A stretch of DNA of 35,019 bases, taken from positions 1 through 35,019 of the forward strand of contig WFSA01000231.1 in the NCBI GenBank assembly GCA_015486215.1, read 5' to 3'. The notes under the pieces were generated by a model. That model did not search any database and was not told the origin of the DNA. It saw only the letters and a program-made list of their open reading frames with translations. The translations under genes were made by a program, and so were the position numbers. The DNA is from Anaerolineae bacterium. GTDB lineage: Bacteria; Chloroflexota; Anaerolineae; Promineifilales; Promineifilaceae. This document shows, piece by piece, positions 947-33,871 of the stretch; positions within the stretch are counted from its first letter, which is position 1; each line of letters starts with the position of its first letter.

Positions 947-1187
947 TTGCACGGATGAACACAGATAAAAAAGCGGGCATGGTTCATTTTTGATGAAATG
1001 ATCTTTACACTTTTTGGGCGACCCAGCGGGTCGCCCCTACGATTCCCTCTTGTAGGGGCGATTCGCTGAATCGCCCAACACAACATAAATTGTAAAGATG
1101 ATTTGCCCAATTCTGAACCATGCCAAAAAGCGGAAAATCAGTGTAATCAGCGCAATCAGTGTACAAATTTTATAATCGAGAAGAATT
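947..1187. repeat. Intergenic hairpin repeats, GGGCGACCC type, plus CAGATT/GTGTA-type repeats
   Basis: There is no gene here. Positions 1016-1076 hold a composite hairpin whose left arm GGGCGACCCAGCGGGTCGCC is itself palindromic, followed by CCTAC, a spacer, and the right arm GTAGGGGCGATTCGCTGAATCGCCC, which pairs with the left and with itself. Related copies lie at 9530, 13988, 29242 and 33810. The flanks (950-985 and 1136-1170) carry fragments of a second dispersed family based on CAGATT/ATCAG words. Confidence 0.7.
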
Positions 1188-5791: not shown

Positions 5792-6673
5792 ATGATCATA
5801 CACAATATGAAAATCGAAGGACACGAACTGTCCGCGCTCTCCTTCAACCCTGATGCCTCAGGACATCCTATCATCCTATTGCATGGCGTTACCGCATCCG
5901 TCGGCTTATGGATTGGAGAGCAAGTCTCTCTTTTTACCCCCTACGGAGCTGTTTATGCGCTAAGCCTGCCCGGTCATTACCCAGCCGCTTTTCCCCCAAG
6001 TTTTCAACAAAAGTCTCTCACCGCCGAGATGATAGCTCGTGTATTGACCACCGCTATACGCAATTTGATCGGCGAGCAAACGGCCGTTCTCGTCGGACAT
6101 TCAACGGGTGGCTTCGCCGCCCTAGCCATCGCCGCCCGCGCCCCCGAACTCGCCCATTCCGTCATCAGCATCGCTGGATTCGCACAAGGGGGATGGATTG
6201 GGCCACTGGGTCTCTCTCAGCGCATCCTGTCGCATGGCTTTATGGGCAGACTGTTTTTCAAAGCGATCTATCTCTCCAATCGCTGGCCGCGATATTACTT
6301 CAAAACAACATGGCGCATTTACAGCACCAATAAAGAGCGTCTATTCACCTTCACTTCGCTTGATGCCATTGTAGACAATATGCTTCCCTATTATAGGAAA
6401 CTCGATCTTGAGGCGATGGCGCAATACTTCATCGCTATGGCCGCCACCAACATCGAAGCATGGCTGCCGCGCATCACCGCCCCCACCCTCATTTTAGTCG
6501 GCGACAGCGATCCCATCGTGCCAACAGCACAATCCTACATAATCGCCGACAATATCCCCAACGCACAATTAGAATTATTCAAAGGCGCAGGGCATGTACT
6601 GATGTTCGAGATGTATGACGAATATAAACAGGTAGTGGATAAATGGTTGCGAAAACAGGTATCTTCTCAATAA
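5792..6673 (+). CDS. Alpha/beta hydrolase
   Basis: The product is 293 aa with the canonical alpha/beta-hydrolase layout: oxyanion segment ILLHGVTA (H31-G32), nucleophile elbow VGHSTGG (Ser104), acid VGDSDPIVP (Asp240 or Asp238) and the catalytic His in GAGHVLMF (His268). A lid region of about 70 residues rich in aromatics (residues 140-205) points to a hydrophobic substrate, but the substrate cannot be named; esterases, lipases and haloperoxidase-like enzymes share this pattern. No signal peptide, so cytoplasmic. A second ATG at 5807 is a possible start. The last four residues V-S-S-Q and the TAA stop are encoded by the end of an inserted repeat element (6659-6770); without it the frame would close within one or two codons. 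Confidence 0.85.
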   Translation: MIIHNMKIEGHELSALSFNPDASGHPIILLHGVTASVGLWIGEQVSLFTPYGAVYALSLPGHYPAAFPPSFQQKSLTAEMIARVLTTAIRNLIGEQTAVLVGHSTGGFAALAIAARAPELAHSVISIAGFAQGGWIGPLGLSQRILSHGFMGRLFFKAIYLSNRWPRYYFKTTWRIYSTNKERLFTFTSLDAIVDNMLPYYRKLDLEAMAQYFIAMAATNIEAWLPRITAPTLILVGDSDPIVPTAQSYIIADNIPNAQLELFKGAGHVLMFEMYDEYKQVVDKWLRKQVSSQ

Positions 6674-6770
6674 ATTGTGGACAAGACTTGATAAATTTCA
6701 TCAGCACTTTATTTTACACGAGTATCATTAGGAAAATTTGTCAAGTCTCCCCAGAATACTGAGAAGATAC
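6659..6770 (-). mobile_element. MITE-like element family 1, copy A (112 bp), 8-bp target duplication
   Basis: The element begins GTATCTTCTCA and ends TGAGAAGATAC, with imperfect terminal inverted repeats of about 38 bp that include AGACTTGACAAATTT. It is flanked by GAAAACAG (6651-6658) and GAAAATAG (6771-6778), an 8-bp target duplication with one mismatch. It lies across the end of the hydrolase gene and supplies its stop codon. Orientation is opposite to copies B, C, D and F. Confidence 0.85.
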
Positions 6771-6925: not shown

Positions 6926-8017
6926 ATGAAATTAGGCATTATCGGCTTGCCCAGCTCGGGCAAAACAACCATTTTCAACGCGCTGACACGAGGGGATGCT
7001 CCCACAGGGCAAAGTATGGGAGGACGGTTTGATGTATCAACGGCCGTTGTCGATGTACGCGACGACCGCATCGACACCCTTTCGGCGATGTTCAACCCCA
7101 AGAAAACAATCTACGCCCGCATCATCTATACCGACGTAGGCGGCTTGAAAAAGAGCGAGCAAAAAGGGAGCAGCCTCAGCGGCGCACTGCTCAATCACCT
7201 CTCCGGATTAGACGGCTTTGTCCACGTCGTCCGCGCCTTTAAAAGCGAACTCGTGCCGCATATGGATGGCTCTGTCAATCCCCTGCGCGATCTGGAAACA
7301 TTAGACATCGAACTGCTGTTCAGCGATCTCGATATTGTCGAAAAGCGGCTGGAAAAACTGCAAAGCGGGCTGGCACGCGGCGCGTTCAGAGGCGAAAAGG
7401 CGGCGGCGCAAGCAGAAGCAGCCCTGTTTGAACAATTACACGAGGCGTTATCAGAGGAACGGCCGTTGCGCGACCTAGACCTCACCGAAGAGCAGATCAA
7501 AGGATTGCGCGGCTACGGGTTGCTCACCCTCAAACCGATGCTCGTCGTCTTCAATATCAGTGACGATCAAGAAGAACTCACCCCCGAATATGATCACAGC
7601 CTCACCGTCGTCACCAATCTGCGCGGCAAATTAGAGATGGAACTTTCCCAACTTAGTGCCGACAATGATACCGAGTCCCTCGACATGTTCATGGATGAAT
7701 ACGGCGTAACCGAACTCAGCCTGGACAAAGTTATCCGCCTCAATTACGAATTGATGGGCTTACAATCCTTCTTCACCGTCGGCGAAGATGAAGTACGCGC
7801 CTGGACGATCCAAAAAGGAGCCAACGCCGTTCAAGCCGCAGGAACCATCCATTCCGACTTAGCCAAAGGGTTCATCCGCGCCGAAACCGTCGCCTATCAT
7901 GACCTCATCACACTTGGCAGTTTGCCCGAAGCACGCAACGCAGGAAAGTTGCGGCAAGAAGGTAAAACATATATCGTTAAAGATGGTGATGTAATCAATA
8001 TCAAATTTAATCTGTAA
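6926..8017 (+). CDS. ychF: YchF/Obg-family nucleotide-binding GTPase/ATPase
   Basis: The product is 363 aa, the usual YchF length. The N-terminal P-loop is GLPSSGKTT (residues 7-15) where most YchF proteins have GLPNVGKST. The G3 region reads YTDVGGLKKSEQKGSSL. The G4 position shows VFNISDD, not NKxD, in keeping with the ATP preference of YchF. A coiled-coil insert spans about residues 125-170 (EKRLEKLQSG to EAALFEQLHE), and the C-terminal TGS domain holds the family block ending GFIRAETVAYHDL and the typical last residues VKDGDVINIKFNL. YchF is a ribosome-associated protein linked to stress control. The start ATG follows AAAAGGATTTTAG, a good ribosome-binding site. A family-2 element sits exactly at the stop: TAA is bases 2-4 of its terminal repeat. 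Confidence 0.92.
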   Translation: MKLGIIGLPSSGKTTIFNALTRGDAPTGQSMGGRFDVSTAVVDVRDDRIDTLSAMFNPKKTIYARIIYTDVGGLKKSEQKGSSLSGALLNHLSGLDGFVHVVRAFKSELVPHMDGSVNPLRDLETLDIELLFSDLDIVEKRLEKLQSGLARGAFRGEKAAAQAEAALFEQLHEALSEERPLRDLDLTEEQIKGLRGYGLLTLKPMLVVFNISDDQEELTPEYDHSLTVVTNLRGKLEMELSQLSADNDTESLDMFMDEYGVTELSLDKVIRLNYELMGLQSFFTVGEDEVRAWTIQKGANAVQAAGTIHSDLAKGFIRAETVAYHDLITLGSLPEARNAGKLRQEGKTYIVKDGDVINIKFNL

Positions 8018-8226
8018 CTACTCAGCTTCTCAACTATTTCACCACGAAGACGCAAAGATCACAAAGAAACTCTTAAAAAACTTCGTACTCTTCGTGTCTT
8101 TGTGGTTAAGGGAAAACTCGTAAATAACTGTGGCCAAGGTGACAGGCACTTGGCAAGTGCCTGTCACCTGAAAGTCCAAAGTTAAAAACGAACCTTCCCT
8201 AAGTATGACAATGGCTGAGTAGTTAC
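8014..8226. mobile_element. MITE-like element family 2, copy 1 (213 bp), 8-bp target duplication
   Basis: Terminal inverted repeats GTAACTACTCAGC and GGCTGAGTAGTTAC. Inside, ACCACGAAGACGCAAAGATC pairs with CTTCGTGTCTTTGTGGT, and a separate 14-bp perfect hairpin (8138-8168, stem GGTGACAGGCACTT) follows. It is flanked by TTTAATCT (8006-8013) and TCTAATCT (8227-8234), an 8-bp duplication with one mismatch. It inserted on the ychF stop codon. A second full copy lies at 21748-22016 and a lone end at 31253-31266. Confidence 0.8.
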
Positions 8227-9590: not shown

Positions 9591-9702
9591 GTATCTTCTC
9601 AGTATTCTGGGGAGACTTGACAAATTTTCCTAATGATACTCATGTAAAATAAAGTGCTGATGAAATTTGTCAAGTCTTGTCCACGATTTGTTGAGAAGAT
9701 AC
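9591..9702 (+). mobile_element. MITE-like element family 1, copy B (112 bp)
   Basis: Full-length copy with intact GTATCTTCTCA and TGAGAAGATAC ends. The flanks CATTCTAT and AAAACTTG do not match, so no target duplication is visible; recombination or decay may have removed it. It lies 27 bp upstream of the acyl-CoA ligase start and leaves that gene's AAAGGAG ribosome-binding site intact. Confidence 0.8.
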
Positions 9703-13969: not shown

Positions 13970-14121
13970 CCCTTTGAACAAAATGCTCTTTGGGCGACCC
14001 AGCGGGCCGCCCCTACTCACTCCTATTCGCTTTTTTTAGTGCAGTCGGCTATCATAAACGGAGTTATTTTGGTGAAATGTGAGATGCAAAAATGGCTTGA
14101 TTTTCAAGCTATAGAAACAAC
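13970..14121. repeat. GGGCGACCC half repeat in the CYTH-rpmB convergent gap
   Basis: TTTGGGCGACCCAGCGGGCC then GCCCCTAC at 13990-14015 is the left arm of the repeat family seen at 1016, with one base change that weakens the palindrome. The rest of the gap shows no further structure that I can support. Confidence 0.55.
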
Positions 14122-20506: not shown

Positions 20507-20606
20507 GTATCTTCTCAGTATTCTGGGGAGACTTGACAAATTTTCGTGTAAAACAAAGTGCTGATGAAATTTGTCAAATCTTGTCCACGATTTATTAAAA
20601 AGATAC
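20507..20606 (+). mobile_element. MITE-like element family 1, copy C (100 bp, internal deletion), perfect 8-bp target duplication
   Basis: It has the family ends, but the right end reads TTAAAAAGATAC, and about 12 bp (CCTAATGATACT in other copies) are missing from the middle. CTTATTAT flanks it on both sides (20499-20506 and 20607-20614). The right duplicate runs into the coaD start codon: its last two bases are the A and T of the ATG. Confidence 0.9.
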
Positions 20607-21226: not shown

Positions 21227-21685
21227 ATGGAAATTCAACATTTAGTAGACCGATTAGAGCAAATCTTAAACGATAGCCGGCGCGTACCGATGAGTGCGTA
21301 TCTGCTAGTCAATGAAGATAGTGTCTATAACTTGATTGACCAACTTCGTATTGCTATCCCTGAAGAGATTAAACGGGCTGGGCGAGTTGAGGCTGAACGT
21401 GACCGCATTCTGGCACAAGCAAAGGAAGAGGGCGAGCGTGTACGTGATATGGCACGGCAAGAGGCAGGGGATTTAGTTGAGCGTGATCGGGTGGTTGTTT
21501 CGGCACAAGATCGGGCTGACAATATCTTAGATCGCGCCCGTCACGATTCGCTGATATTGGTACAAGATGCTGATACGTATGTGGTTGACGTGTTATCAAA
21601 CTTAGAAGCGGATTTACTAAATTCGCTGGCTGTTGTGCGAAACGGGTTAAACAAGGTGCAAACGCAAAATACAAATGAACAATGA
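21227..21685 (+). CDS. Coiled-coil protein (ATP synthase subunit b/E-like shape), function unknown
   Basis: The product is 152 aa from the ATG at 21227; the upstream in-frame codons fall in repeat DNA. It begins MEIQHLVDRLEQILNDSRRVPMS and continues with a long charged helix rich in A, E and R (about residues 45-105: EEIKRAGRVEAERDRILAQA and onward). This gives the look of F- or V-type ATPase stalk subunits or DivIVA-type coiled coils, but there is no membrane segment. A similar protein commonly follows coaD in Chloroflexota, by memory. The C-terminal T-N-E-Q and the TGA stop lie at the edge of AATGAACAATGAATAATG repeat DNA, so the present end may not be the ancestral one. No function can be named. 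Confidence 0.65.
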   Translation: MEIQHLVDRLEQILNDSRRVPMSAYLLVNEDSVYNLIDQLRIAIPEEIKRAGRVEAERDRILAQAKEEGERVRDMARQEAGDLVERDRVVVSAQDRADNILDRARHDSLILVQDADTYVVDVLSNLEADLLNSLAVVRNGLNKVQTQNTNEQ

Positions 21686-21747
21686 ATAATGAATAATGGG
21701 TATCTTCTCAAAAAATTGGGGGCATGAGTACAATGGATTGGGAAAAG

Positions 21748-22016
21748 GTAACTACTCAGCCTATCAATTATTTCACCACAAAGAAGCAAAGATCACAAAG
21801 AAAATGTATCCTCTCAAAAAAGCGGAGAAGTTATTTTGTTTTTAGTATGACTACAGCAGATTATAAAAATGAACGGATATTTTCTCGACTGCACCATCCG
21901 TTTATTTCTTTCATCCGTTGTAGTCACCCCGAAATATTGAGAAATTACGAAAATCTTAAAAAGTTTTGTGTTCTTCGTGTCTTTGTGGTTAATTTGGACA
22001 AGGGGTGAGTAGTTAC
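21748..22016. mobile_element. MITE-like element family 2, copy 2 (269 bp including insertion), perfect 8-bp target duplication
   Basis: The ends are GTAACTACTCAGCC and GGGTGAGTAGTTAC, with the inner ACCACAAAGAAGCAAAGATC and CTTCGTGTCTTTGTGGT arms as in copy 1. GGGAAAAG flanks it on both sides (21740-21747 and 22017-22024). It is itself interrupted by a further element at 21806-21948. Confidence 0.85.
21806..21948. mobile_element. Innermost MITE-like element, family 1 variant (143 bp)
   Basis: It begins GTATCCTCTCAAAAAAGCGG and ends CACCCCGAAATATTGAG, then AAATTAC, so its ends match the outer shell with a few changes. It interrupts the CACAAAGAAA/CTTAAAAA junction that is continuous in family-2 copy 1. 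GAAAAT is repeated on both sides (6 bp). A related but left-truncated copy lies at 30935-31024. Confidence 0.7.
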
Positions 22017-22108
22017 GGGAAAAGAACAGATTTACCCGACTGACGCAATTTGTTCCTTCCTTAATTTGTTGTACTCACCCCGAAATATTGAGAAGATACA
22101 ATAATTGT

Positions 22109-22417
22109 TCATTGTTCATTGTTCATTGCCTCATACTCAGCTTCGCTAATAAAATGACCGCCTTCTAACTCTTTTTTGACGACTTTATACTCACGGTCGA
22201 GAAGGACAAAGGCCTGCATCGGACGGAAACAGCCAGCATCCACGATAGTTTTATGCCAAGCATATCCCTTGTCAACATTATTTAGATCATGTGATTTGTC
22301 GGCACGGATGCGAACGGCCGTTTTGCAATTATCACATACCGCATAAAAATATAACCCTTTCCTGTCCACATACGGCTTGGGTTTGCCATCGCCAAATAAA
22401 TTCTTTAAAAAGCCCAT
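22109..22417 (-). CDS. Small zinc-ribbon-like protein, function unknown
   Basis: The product is 102 aa. It opens MGFLKNLFGDGKPKP, then YFYAVCDNCKTAVRIRADKSHDL with a C28-x2-C31 pair, a lone Cys63 in DAGCFRP, and the ending VLLDREYKVVKKELEGGHFI then SEAEYE. The single CxxC could hold half of a zinc site or a metal in a dimer. GGAAAATAACG before the ATG on the minus strand is a usable ribosome-binding site. The last residues A-M-N-N-E-Q and the stop are read from TTGTTCATTG-type repeats, so the C-terminus appears to have been fixed by repeat DNA. One AACGGCCGTT at the codons for T-A-V supports long residence in this genome. Conserved hypothetical; no function named. Confidence 0.65.
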   Translation of the reverse strand: MGFLKNLFGDGKPKPYVDRKGLYFYAVCDNCKTAVRIRADKSHDLNNVDKGYAWHKTIVDAGCFRPMQAFVLLDREYKVVKKELEGGHFISEAEYEAMNNEQ

Positions 22418-22551: not shown

Positions 22552-22663
22552 GTATCTTCTCAGTATTCTGGGGAGACTTGACAAATTTTCCTAATGATAC
22601 TCGTGTAAAATAAAGTGCTGATGAAATTTGTCAAGTCTTGTCCATGATTTATTGAGAAGATAC
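22552..22663 (+). mobile_element. MITE-like element family 1, copy D (112 bp)
   Basis: Full copy with intact ends. It is not flanked by a direct repeat; instead GTAACTT before and AAGTTAC after are inverted, extending the palindrome outward. It sits in the leader of the cyclase gene. Confidence 0.85.
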
Positions 22664-26755: not shown

Positions 26756-26867
26756 GTATCTTCTCAATAAATCGTGGACAAGACTTGACAAATTTCATCA
26801 GCACTTTATTCTACACAAGTATCATTAGGAAAACCTGTCAAGTCTCCCCAGAATACTGAGAAGATAC
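26756..26867 (-). mobile_element. MITE-like element family 1, copy E (112 bp), 8-bp target duplication
   Basis: Full copy in reverse orientation. The flanks are GATAAACA (26748-26755) and GATAAAAA (26868-26875), 7 of 8 identical. It lies between the RNB gene and the HExxH gene. On the plus strand it reads TTGACA, 16 bp, TATTCT, a possible outward promoter. Confidence 0.85.
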
Positions 26868-27710: not shown

Positions 27711-27807
27711 GTATCTTCTCAGTATTCTGGGGAGACTTGACAAATTTCCCTAATAATACTCGTGTAAAATAAAATGCTGATGAAATTTGTCAAGTCTTGT
27801 CCATGAA
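27711..27807 (+). mobile_element. MITE-like element family 1, copy F (right end truncated)
   Basis: It matches the other copies from GTATCTTCTCAGTATTCTGG to CTTGTCCATGA, then departs from them. About 15 bp of the right end, including GAGAAGATAC, are gone, so no target duplication can be read. The truncation falls at the start of the sigma factor's upstream region. Confidence 0.85.
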
Positions 27808-27832
27808 TTACACCATAAACACAGTTTCCCTC

Positions 27833-28011: not shown

Positions 28012-29241
28012 ATGAGCAATCTGACCAATCCATTCGATGAAATGGAAGCTGTCAGCGCATTATTAAGCGACGGCGCAGAGATAGGATATGTCACCCATGA
28101 CCAAATCCTAGAAGCAATGCCAGAAGTTGAGAATAATATCATACTGCTTGAATCTGTGTTAGAAAAAATGCAGAGCGCGGGCATTCTTGTTTACGAGACA
28201 AAAGAAGAGGCCAAAGAGATGTTTGGCCGTAAGGAGACGACGGATGTCGGCTCTATTGATAAAAAGACGGCATCGAAAACGGCCGTTATTTCCGCAGATT
28301 CCCACGCAGCTCCCCTATTCGATTTAACCAATGTTCCCATAGACGATTCCGTCGGCCTCTATTTCCGCGAAATGGGGCAGCAACAGCTGCTGACCGCCGA
28401 AGAAGAAGTCCAATTAGCGTTAGAGATTGAAGCAGGACGGGCGGCCGAGCAAAATTTAGCTGTCCGCACCTTTAGCGAGAGCGAGCAGCAATGCCTGCAA
28501 GAAGTAGATAATGTTGGAGCTGCTGCTCGCGCTCATATCATTCGCGCCAATACCCGTCTGGTTGTCAGTATCGCCAAAAAATATCGTGGACGCGGCTTGC
28601 AATTCCTTGATCTCATTCAAGAAGGGAATGTCGGCTTGATGAAAGCGGTCGAAAAGTATGATTATCGGCGCGGCAATCGGTTCAGCACCTATGCGACATG
28701 GTGGATTCGGCAAGCGGTGACGCGGGCGTTGGCAAATCACGGCCGTACCATCCGTATTCCCGCCCATTTAGGCGGCCGTATCAGCAAACTATATCAAGTC
28801 GCGCAAGAGCTAGAGCAAACACTAGGCCGTCAAGCGACCCCAGAAGAGATCGCCAAACATATGGATTTGCCCGCCGACCGCGTGCGCTGGATGTTACGCA
28901 CCAGCCGCCAGCCGGTCCATCTGGAACGTCCCGTAGGGGACGAATCAGATGCCGAATTGGGCGACTTTATCGAAGATAATGATGCTCCGCCGCCAGCAGA
29001 AGAAGCGGCGCAACATATGTTGACCGAAGAGTTGGGCGACATCTTAGGCCAGCTAACCCCGCGCGAAGCCCGTATTTTGCGCTTGCGCTACGGCTTGCAA
29101 GATGGCGAATCACGCACCTTGAAAGAGGTGGGTGAAATGTTCGGCCTCTCCCGCGAGCGTATCCGTCAATTAGAAAAAGAGGCGTTACGCAAATTACGCC
29201 ATCCAAATTTTGCCGGTCATTTGCGGCAATACTTGAACTAA
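28012..29241 (+). CDS. rpoD: RNA polymerase primary sigma factor (RpoD/SigA-type)
   Basis: The product is 409 aa. The N-terminal part (residues 1-80, with LLSDGAEIGYVTHDQILEAM) corresponds to region 1.1. Region 1.2 is DDSVGLYFREMGQQQLLTAE, followed after a short non-conserved insert by region 2 (RANTRLVVSIAKKYRGRGLQ, FLDLIQEGNVGLMKAVEKYD, RGNRFSTYATWWIRQAVTRA), region 3 (HLGGRISKLYQVAQELEQ to RQATPEEIAKHMDLPADRVR) and region 4 (LTPREARILRLRYGLQDG, then TLKEVGEMFGLSRERIRQLE for -35 binding). The full set of regions marks a group 1 or close group 2 sigma. It recognises -10/-35 promoters of the sort seen upstream of rpmB. GAGAGAGGA lies 10 nt before the ATG. Confidence 0.92.
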   Translation: MSNLTNPFDEMEAVSALLSDGAEIGYVTHDQILEAMPEVENNIILLESVLEKMQSAGILVYETKEEAKEMFGRKETTDVGSIDKKTASKTAVISADSHAAPLFDLTNVPIDDSVGLYFREMGQQQLLTAEEEVQLALEIEAGRAAEQNLAVRTFSESEQQCLQEVDNVGAAARAHIIRANTRLVVSIAKKYRGRGLQFLDLIQEGNVGLMKAVEKYDYRRGNRFSTYATWWIRQAVTRALANHGRTIRIPAHLGGRISKLYQVAQELEQTLGRQATPEEIAKHMDLPADRVRWMLRTSRQPVHLERPVGDESDAELGDFIEDNDAPPPAEEAAQHMLTEELGDILGQLTPREARILRLRYGLQDGESRTLKEVGEMFGLSRERIRQLEKEALRKLRHPNFAGHLRQYLN

Positions 29242-29300
29242 TGGGCGATTCAGCGAACCGCCCCTACGGGGGGATGCCCTGTAGGAGTGACCCGCTGGGA
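29242..29300. repeat. GGGCGATTC/GAGTGACCCGC hairpin repeat after the sigma factor
   Basis: GGGCGATTCAGCGAACCGCC then CCTACGG, followed by CTGTAGGAGTGACCCGCTGG: another member of the repeat family seen at 1016, 13990 and 33810, directly after the stop codon. Confidence 0.65.
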
Positions 29301-31679: not shown

Positions 31680-31940
31680 TGTCATTCTCGCCCCCATCCC
31701 CCCTTCGTGAGGACAGGCACTTCATGAGGGCAAACTCTTTTAAACGGGAATCCAGTGTCTTCTCAATAAATCATGGACAAGACTTGACAAATTTCATCAG
31801 CACTTTATTTTACACGAGTATCATTAGGGAAATTTGTCAAGTCTCCCCAGAATACTGAGAAGATACGGAATCCACTCCTCGAATAACATATGGATTCCCG
31901 TCTTCACGGAGCCTGCCCTCACGAAGGCGGAATGACAAAC
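31680..31940. repeat. Dispersed GTCATTC...GAATGAC repeat hosting MITE copy G
   Basis: GTCATTCTCGCCCCC at the left and GGCGGAATGAC at the right enclose CTTCATGAGGGCA, GGGAATCCA and TGGATTCCCG. It has the same vocabulary as the composite repeat 11514-11843. It is interrupted by the element at 31755-31866. Confidence 0.65.
31755..31866 (-). mobile_element. MITE-like element family 1, copy G (112 bp), perfect 8-bp target duplication
   Basis: Full copy in reverse orientation with one change in the first ten bases (GTGTCTTCTC). GGAATCCA flanks it on both sides (31747-31754 and 31867-31874). The uninterrupted relative of the host repeat (around 11601) has GGAATCCA once, which supports duplication on insertion. 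Confidence 0.9.
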
Positions 31941-33789: not shown

Positions 33790-33808
33790 ATGATATCCTC
33801 GGTTTAAT

Positions 33809-33871
33809 GACGGGCGACCCAACGGGTCGCTCCTACGGTGGTTGTGGGGGCGATTCAGGGAATCGCCTATT
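33809..33871. repeat. GGGCGACCC hairpin repeat inside the ABC operon
   Basis: GGGCGACCCAACGGGTCGC and GGGGCGATTCAGGGAATCGCC flank a short spacer, the same family as at 1016. It fills the gap between the ATPase stop and the first permease start and may affect expression of the downstream genes. Confidence 0.65.

What the first reader, a model, noticed from the sequence alone, without database searches (positions are those of the whole stretch)
21700..22099. Three elements nested inside each other
A family-1 variant (21700-22099, duplication AATAATKG) is split by a family-2 element (21748-22016, perfect duplication GGGAAAAG), which is itself split by another family-1 variant (21806-21948, GAAAAT on both sides). 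The order of events can be read: outer first, then family 2, then inner. The inner and outer elements have the same type of ends, so that family was active both before and after the family-2 insertion.
Basis: seen in the sequence. Interest (0 to 1): 0.75.

Follow-up and report, generated by a model that had tools for sequence, protein, structure and literature searches.

The report
Three nested IS66-type mini-transposons
Three short "jumping" DNA elements sit one inside another in a Chloroflexota bacterium; each is a gene-less relative of IS66 insertion sequences, and such nesting is common in this genome because one of the two groups prefers target sequences that older copies happen to contain.

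Summary
At 21700-22099 a 123-bp MITE (A) is split by a 120-bp MITE (F2), which is split by a 143-bp MITE (B). Joined across the breaks, both outer elements align gap-free to unbroken copies elsewhere in the genome. The ends identify the source: complete transposase-bearing IS66 elements in the same class carry the family-1 ends (GTATCTTCTCAATA..) and, in the same taxonomic family, family-2-like ends (GTAACTACTCAG..), with 8-bp duplications. The host genome shows only a broken IS66 remnant. In 1.30 Mb of this genome, family-1 elements enter other MITEs repeatedly at the same 8-bp sites; a target model trained only on non-nested insertions predicts most of them, whereas hairpin targeting is rejected. 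One nested composite, F2 carrying A, was amplified as a unit (about 16 junctions genome-wide). New MITE families of a known kind; moderately interesting.

The parts
21700..22099 (+). Outer element, MITE subfamily A (family 1), 123 bp when joined; interrupted by F2
   Evidence: Ends GTATCTTCTCAAAAAATTGGGG / CCCCGAAATATTGAGAAGATAC; joined sequence compared with 45 other unbroken A copies (best 96.7% without gaps, median 85.4%)
21692..21699 (.). Left target duplication of the outer element, AATAATGG
22100..22107 (.). Right target duplication of the outer element, AATAATTG (one mismatch)
21748..22016 (+). Middle element, MITE family F2 (family 2), 120 bp when joined; interrupted by B
   Evidence: Ends GTAACTACTCAGCC / GGGTGAGTAGTTAC; joined sequence compared with 27 unbroken F2 copies (best 95.0% without gaps)
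21740..21747 (.). Left target duplication of F2, GGGAAAAG
22017..22024 (.). Right target duplication of F2, GGGAAAAG (perfect)
21806..21948 (+). Inner element, MITE subfamily B (family 1), 143 bp
   Evidence: Ends GTATCCTCTCAAAAAAG / ...GAAATATTGAGAAATTAC; 96.5% to an unbroken copy; alignable to A
21798..21805 (.). Left target duplication of inner, AAGAAAAT (F2 position 51-58, the recurrent target)
21949..21954 (.). Right target duplication of inner, GAAAAT: an 8-bp copy that lost two bases
   Evidence: compare C206, C59, C242
21674..21691 (.). Left arm of the AT-rich palindrome in which the outer element sits
   Evidence: inverted repeat I4
22104..22127 (.). Right arm of that palindrome

Best explanation
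The structure is three non-autonomous IS66-type MITEs inserted one in another. Family 1 (A, B and the related C and Cp) carries the ends of a roughly 1.85-kb single-ORF IS66 branch (transposase 556-575 aa). Family 2 (F2) carries ends like those of a second, roughly 1.5-kb IS66 branch (about 490 aa). Inferred mechanism: an IS66 transposase acts in trans on the short terminal repeats and inserts with an 8-bp staggered cut. Family-1 insertion prefers a weak, symmetric, AT-rich target of about 24-28 bp. F2 and C copies happen to contain good matches, so they act as landing pads and are hit repeatedly by different elements in both orientations. A nested host keeps both its ends and can still be mobilised, so composites such as F2[A] become new, longer MITEs. 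Shown: anatomy, 8-bp duplications, matching ends on complete IS66 elements, target preference, recurrent sites, and shared ancestry of the composite copies. Inferred: trans-mobilisation by IS66 transposase, and the assignment of F2 to the second branch.
For: (1) 8-bp duplications: 107 of 199 simple pairs. (2) Ends matched to transposase-bearing elements. L195 50-1864 (duplication AATTTCTC, ORF 560 aa), L196 44-1909 (AGTGACAT, 556 aa) and L199 35-1869 (TGCAGATG) have GTATC[TA]TCTCAAT... ends; Pfam DDE_Tnp_IS66 for L196 at 6.4e-13 and L195 at 2.9e-11, NCBIfam transpos_IS66 for L196 at 1.4e-34 (below its equivalog cut-off). (3) Truncated IS66 remnants end in the same terminal repeat in a relative (L185) and in the host genome itself (L198, contig C263). 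(4) Family-2 ends: L280 1367-2916, 1550 bp, GTAACTACTCAGG at both ends, duplication AAGGGATT, over a 490-aa IS66 frame. The experimentally mobile ISDge4 (IS66, ISBst12 group) has ends GTGACTACTCAGCA/GTAACTGCTCAGCA and an 8-bp repeat (PMC12898284). (5) Target model: 5-fold cross-validation puts 64% of 136 family-1 sites in the top 5% of positions within 80 bp. Nested sites F2-51, F2-22, F2-19 and C-63 rank 1/93, 3/93, 5/93 and 2/85 although no nested site was used in training. (6) F2 position 51-58 is hit by C in both orientations, Cp and B; C position 63-70 by B and by Cp in both orientations. (7) F2[A] composites: inserts closer to each other than to other A copies (0.060 against 0.142, 0 of 5000 random sets as close); hosts share three diagnostic bases in 11 of 11, with several different perfect 8-bp duplications.
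Against: No intact IS66 transposase was found in the host genome (PF03050 none); only a 119-codon remnant. The genome is a draft of 341 contigs (96% complete), so an autonomous copy may be missing or lost. The MITE interiors were not seen to share anything with the IS66 elements beyond the ends. F2 ends match L280 over 12 bases only, and no IS66 element with exactly GTAACTACTCAGCC was found. Trans-mobilisation was not tested in a cell. Three further nested sites (F2-36, F2-96, A-41) are not strong matches to the target model; A-41 was hit by F2, which does not follow that model.
Confidence: 0.88

Rival explanations
1. The composite F2[B] formed elsewhere and jumped into the outer element as one unit, so that the inner insertion is older than the F2 insertion into A.
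For: Composites demonstrably move as units: F2[A] copies share insert and host ancestry and have different duplications. The inner duplication is more decayed (2-base loss) than the F2 duplication (perfect).
Against: The only other copy with B at the same F2 site (C206) is not related to it beyond a star phylogeny, either in the insert (0.106 against 0.106) or in the host (0.090 against 0.096); no third copy was found by the junction scan. The difference in duplication decay is one event.
Confidence: 0.25
2. The recurrent nested sites reflect insertion at the tips of hairpins or cruciforms formed by palindromic MITEs, not sequence preference.
For: F2-51 and C-63 lie near the middle of palindromes; the outer element sits inside an AATGAAC-type palindrome.
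Against: At 149 clean non-nested targets, hairpin energy is weaker at the target (-4.8 kcal/mol mean) than 40-70 bp away (-5.4 to -6.1). A sequence-only model predicts the nested sites.
Confidence: 0.05
3. The nested structure is an assembly or recombination artefact.
For: Draft genome with many contig ends in repeats.
Against: Every junction carries an 8-bp duplication consistent with insertion; joined elements match unbroken copies without gaps; dozens of nested cases follow the same rules.
Confidence: 0.02
4. Another 8-bp-duplicating transposase family moves these MITEs.
For: No intact IS66 transposase in the host genome.
Against: Matching ends on IS66 elements in relatives and on an IS66 remnant in the host; ISL3 (PF01610) also absent from the host. 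IS256 and IS1595 were not searched.
Confidence: 0.07

Closest known systems
IS66 insertion-sequence family, single-ORF ISBst12 group (e.g. ISDge4 of Deinococcus geothermalis, PMC12898284)
   Same: Ends begin GTA/GTG; F2 ends GTAACTACTCAGCC nearly equal ISDge4 ends; 8-bp target duplication; single long IS66 transposase ORF in the related complete elements
   Different: The window elements carry no gene and are 120-143 bp; their interiors are palindromes
Bacterial MITEs in general (non-autonomous IS derivatives; e.g. MITEAba12 of Moraxellaceae, PMC6382973)
   Same: Short, gene-less, terminal inverted repeats, target duplications, many copies
   Different: New sequence families; here tied to two IS66 branches; nesting and re-mobilised composites documented
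Nested transposable elements of plant genomes (e.g. maize and rice MULEs, PMC3903597)
   Same: Insertion into insertion, order partly readable from duplications
   Different: Bacterial, about 100-bp elements, recurrent at a defined 8-bp site

Membership tests
MITE (non-autonomous DNA transposon) | Short, no coding capacity, terminal inverted repeats | tested here: met
   123, 120 and 143 bp with terminal inverted repeats; no ORF of 100 aa or more inside
MITE (non-autonomous DNA transposon) | Target-site duplication of constant length, multiple dispersed copies | tested here: met
   8 bp; 45 A, 44 B, 27 F2, 200 C and 21 Cp full copies in 1.30 Mb
MITE (non-autonomous DNA transposon) | Ends shared with an autonomous element | tested here: met
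   Family 1: L195, L196, L199; family 2: L280 (12 bases)
MITE (non-autonomous DNA transposon) | Mobilised in trans by that element's transposase | not testable with these tools
   needs a transposition assay
IS66-derived | 8-bp target duplication and terminal repeats beginning GTA | tested here: met
   IS66 elements with 8-bp repeats also in PMC3281130 and PMC12898284
IS66-derived | IS66 transposase (PF03050) between the same ends | tested here: met
   In relatives: L196 and L195, L280; remnant only in the host genome (L198)
IS66 insertion sequence itself | Encodes its own transposase | tested here: not met
   Window elements are gene-less; they are derivatives, not IS66 elements
ISL3-derived | ISL3 transposase present with matching ends | tested here: not met
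   PF01610 absent from the host genome

The most novel reading that the evidence does not exclude
IS66 transposition of the GTATCTTCTCA branch has a readable symmetric target preference of about 24-28 bp. Because older MITEs carry good matches, they act as built-in landing pads, and the resulting nested composites are re-mobilised, making nesting a regular route by which bacteria build new, longer non-autonomous elements.
Probability: 0.55. Interest if true: 0.5.

Novelty: new member of a known kind. Interest (0 to 1): 0.4.

Why it matters
Target choice by IS66 elements is little described; my searches of the open paper library found no target-preference description. A genome with hundreds of MITE copies and exact duplications gives a target model from sequence alone. 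The F2[A] composite shows that a nested element is not a dead fossil but can be amplified as a new unit. The window's nest is a three-layer example, and it warns that event order cannot be read from nesting alone.

Tried and rejected
Hairpin or cruciform targeting: rejected by energies at 149 clean targets. ISL3 as source: none. First look for IS66 in the host by Pfam gave nothing; the link came from a remnant in a relative and a protein search across the class. A search for long elements with these ends in 780 kb of the host and in relatives found only composites or chance pairs; the 919-bp pair in L069 is two separate C elements at GATAATTG. Shared sequence at contig ends showed short repeats, no IS. 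Viral contigs: no match. Rfam: none in the window. Idea that C206 carries the same F2[B] composite as the window: rejected, distances equal star expectation. Covariation between A and B hairpin arms is weak: 4 of 30 pairs with double changes, mostly following subfamily.

Full report
WHAT IS THERE. The window is contig C231 of a 4.13-Mb draft genome in 341 contigs. Two named records that carry the same kind of element are Chloroflexi/Anaerolineae metagenome bins, so the host is taken to be an Anaerolineae (Chloroflexota). Outer A is 21700-22099, middle F2 is 21748-22016, inner B is 21806-21948.

CHECK OF THE OBSERVATION. The outer duplication is AATAATGG/AATAATTG and the middle one GGGAAAAG/GGGAAAAG. 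The inner one is not 6 bp. The unbroken F2 consensus reads CAAAGAAAATCTT, and other insertions at the same site have AAGAAAAT on both sides; in the window the right copy has lost two bases. Joining across each break gives a 123-bp A and a 120-bp F2. They align gap-free at 96.7% and 95.0% to unbroken copies; the 143-bp inner element matches at 96.5%. In 780 kb of the genome, 107 of 199 simple end pairs are flanked by exactly 8 identical bases.

WHAT MOVES THEM. The family-1 ends (GTATCTTCTCAATA...) and 8-bp duplications recur on complete transposase-bearing elements of the same class. L195 50-1864 has duplication AATTTCTC and a 560-aa ORF; L196 44-1909 has AGTGACAT and 556 aa; L199 35-1869 has TGCAGATG and a broken ORF. 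These ORFs are IS66 transposases (L199 was not scanned). A truncated IS66 C-terminus ending in the same terminal repeat occurs in a relative (L185) and in the host genome (L198, contig C263). In the same taxonomic family, about 1.5-kb IS66 elements end in GTAAC-type repeats. L280 1367-2916 has GTAACTACTCAGG at both ends and duplication AAGGGATT; F2 ends are GTAACTACTCAGCC. ISDge4, seen to transpose in Deinococcus geothermalis and assigned to the ISBst12 group of IS66, has ends GTGACTACTCAGCA and GTAACTGCTCAGCA and an 8-bp repeat (PMC12898284). The two families therefore most likely depend on two IS66 branches. In line with this, F2 targets do not follow the family-1 target model (median percentile 0.26, n = 13).

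WHY NESTS ARE COMMON AND HIT THE SAME SITES. A census of 1.30 Mb of the host found recurrent nested sites. F2 position 51-58 (AAGAAAAT) is hit by C in both orientations, by Cp and by B. C position 63-70 (AGTATCAT) is hit by B and by Cp in both orientations. F2 22-29 is hit by C in both orientations. If the roughly ten distinct events in F2 were placed at random over 93 positions, four or more at one site would occur with probability 0.0003. A position-weight model trained on 136 family-1 insertions that are not next to any other library element shows a weak symmetric preference: T at -7 and -5, A at -3, purine at -1, then the AT-rich 8 bp, then the mirror image. In cross-validation 64% of true sites fall in the top 5% of positions within 80 bp. 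The model ranks F2-51 first of 93, F2-22 third, F2-19 fifth and C-63 second of 85. The distinct nested sites together give p = 0.0006, although F2-36 (26th) and F2-96 (25th) rank poorly. Hairpin targeting is rejected.

COMPOSITES MOVE. F2 with A at position 36 occurs about 16 times in the genome by its junction sequence (the reversed control gives none). Several copies have different perfect 8-bp duplications: CAGAATTT, CACCGATA, CAATTGCC, AATAAATC, CATTATTC, GTTAATTG, TTTATTTG. Different duplications alone would not prove movement as a unit, because each F2 could have landed first and been hit later. The ancestry test does. The A inserts are closer to each other than to other A copies (0.060 against 0.142; star expectation 0.130; 0 of 5000 random sets as close). 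One of the ten inserts (L242) is an exception whose nearest neighbours lie outside the group. Their F2 hosts share three diagnostic bases in 11 of 11 copies (positions 71, 72, 106; position 72 differs in all 37 others).

ORDER OF EVENTS IN THE WINDOW. Certain: A was present before F2 entered it, and F2 existed before B entered it. Not certain: whether B entered F2 before or after F2 reached A. The only other B at the same F2 site (C206, duplication TGATAATG on the plus strand of its contig) is no closer to the window copy than independent copies, in insert and in host. It is best read as an independent hit on the preferred site.

SAME OR NEW. These are MITEs by anatomy and IS66-derived by ends, duplication length and complete relatives. 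They are not IS66 elements themselves. A and B are related subfamilies. The sequences are new to me and I found no description in the open library, but the kind is known. New, as far as I could check, are the target preference read from sequence and the amplified nested composite.

LIMITS. Draft genome; no second strain; no assay. 1.30 of 4.13 Mb was read in full, chosen around known copies, so counts are not genome-wide totals except where a whole-genome scan is cited. The first-look searches scored only the best 40 candidates. The star test for the window's F2[B] rests on two copies.

Noticed in passing
window 1-35019 (56 sites) and host genome pieces: The palindromic octamer ACGGCCGT occurs 56 times in the window against 0.6 expected and at 1.5 per kb over 1.30 Mb of the host; sampled pieces of one relative (G013) instead hold GCGGCCGC at about 1.5 per kb and almost no ACGGCCGT. 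It resembles the dispersed HIP1 octamer of cyanobacteria, with a different octamer in a different genus of the same family.
   Followed up: partly
L129 (contig C206) about 7328-7485: A palindromic insert with GGCCATT ends flanked by TA sits inside the end of the B element, a further nesting layer of a different, mariner/IS630-like type.
   Followed up: partly
L129 3751-4100 and L255 4340-4799 (contigs C206 and C270): Both carry F2 with an A-type element at position 36 and a Cp element at position 51, in different flanks: a possible doubly loaded composite that moved.
   Followed up: partly
window 21674-21699 and 22100-22127: The outer element sits in a palindromic tract of AATGAAC/AATGAAT repeats; similar tracts flank several other insertions (L242, L255, L129) and an IS66 remnant in a relative (L185).
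   Followed up: no
window 6659-6770, 9591-9702, 20507-20606, 22552-22663, 26756-26867, 27711-27810, 31755-31866: Seven copies of the related MITE C, about one per 5 kb; 200 full copies in 1.30 Mb.
   Followed up: yes
window 8014-8226: An F2 variant with a different right part (213 bp, duplication TTTAATCT/TCTAATCT).
   Followed up: no
window 1010-1091, 13986-14016, 29237-29267, 33806-33836: Another repeat family, short palindromes of the type GGGCGACCCAGCGGGTCGCCCCTAC.
   Followed up: no
L187 3702-3844 (JANTHP010000169.1): A 143-bp B-type element with perfect ends and duplication CTTCACTT in another Anaerolineae bin.
   Followed up: partly
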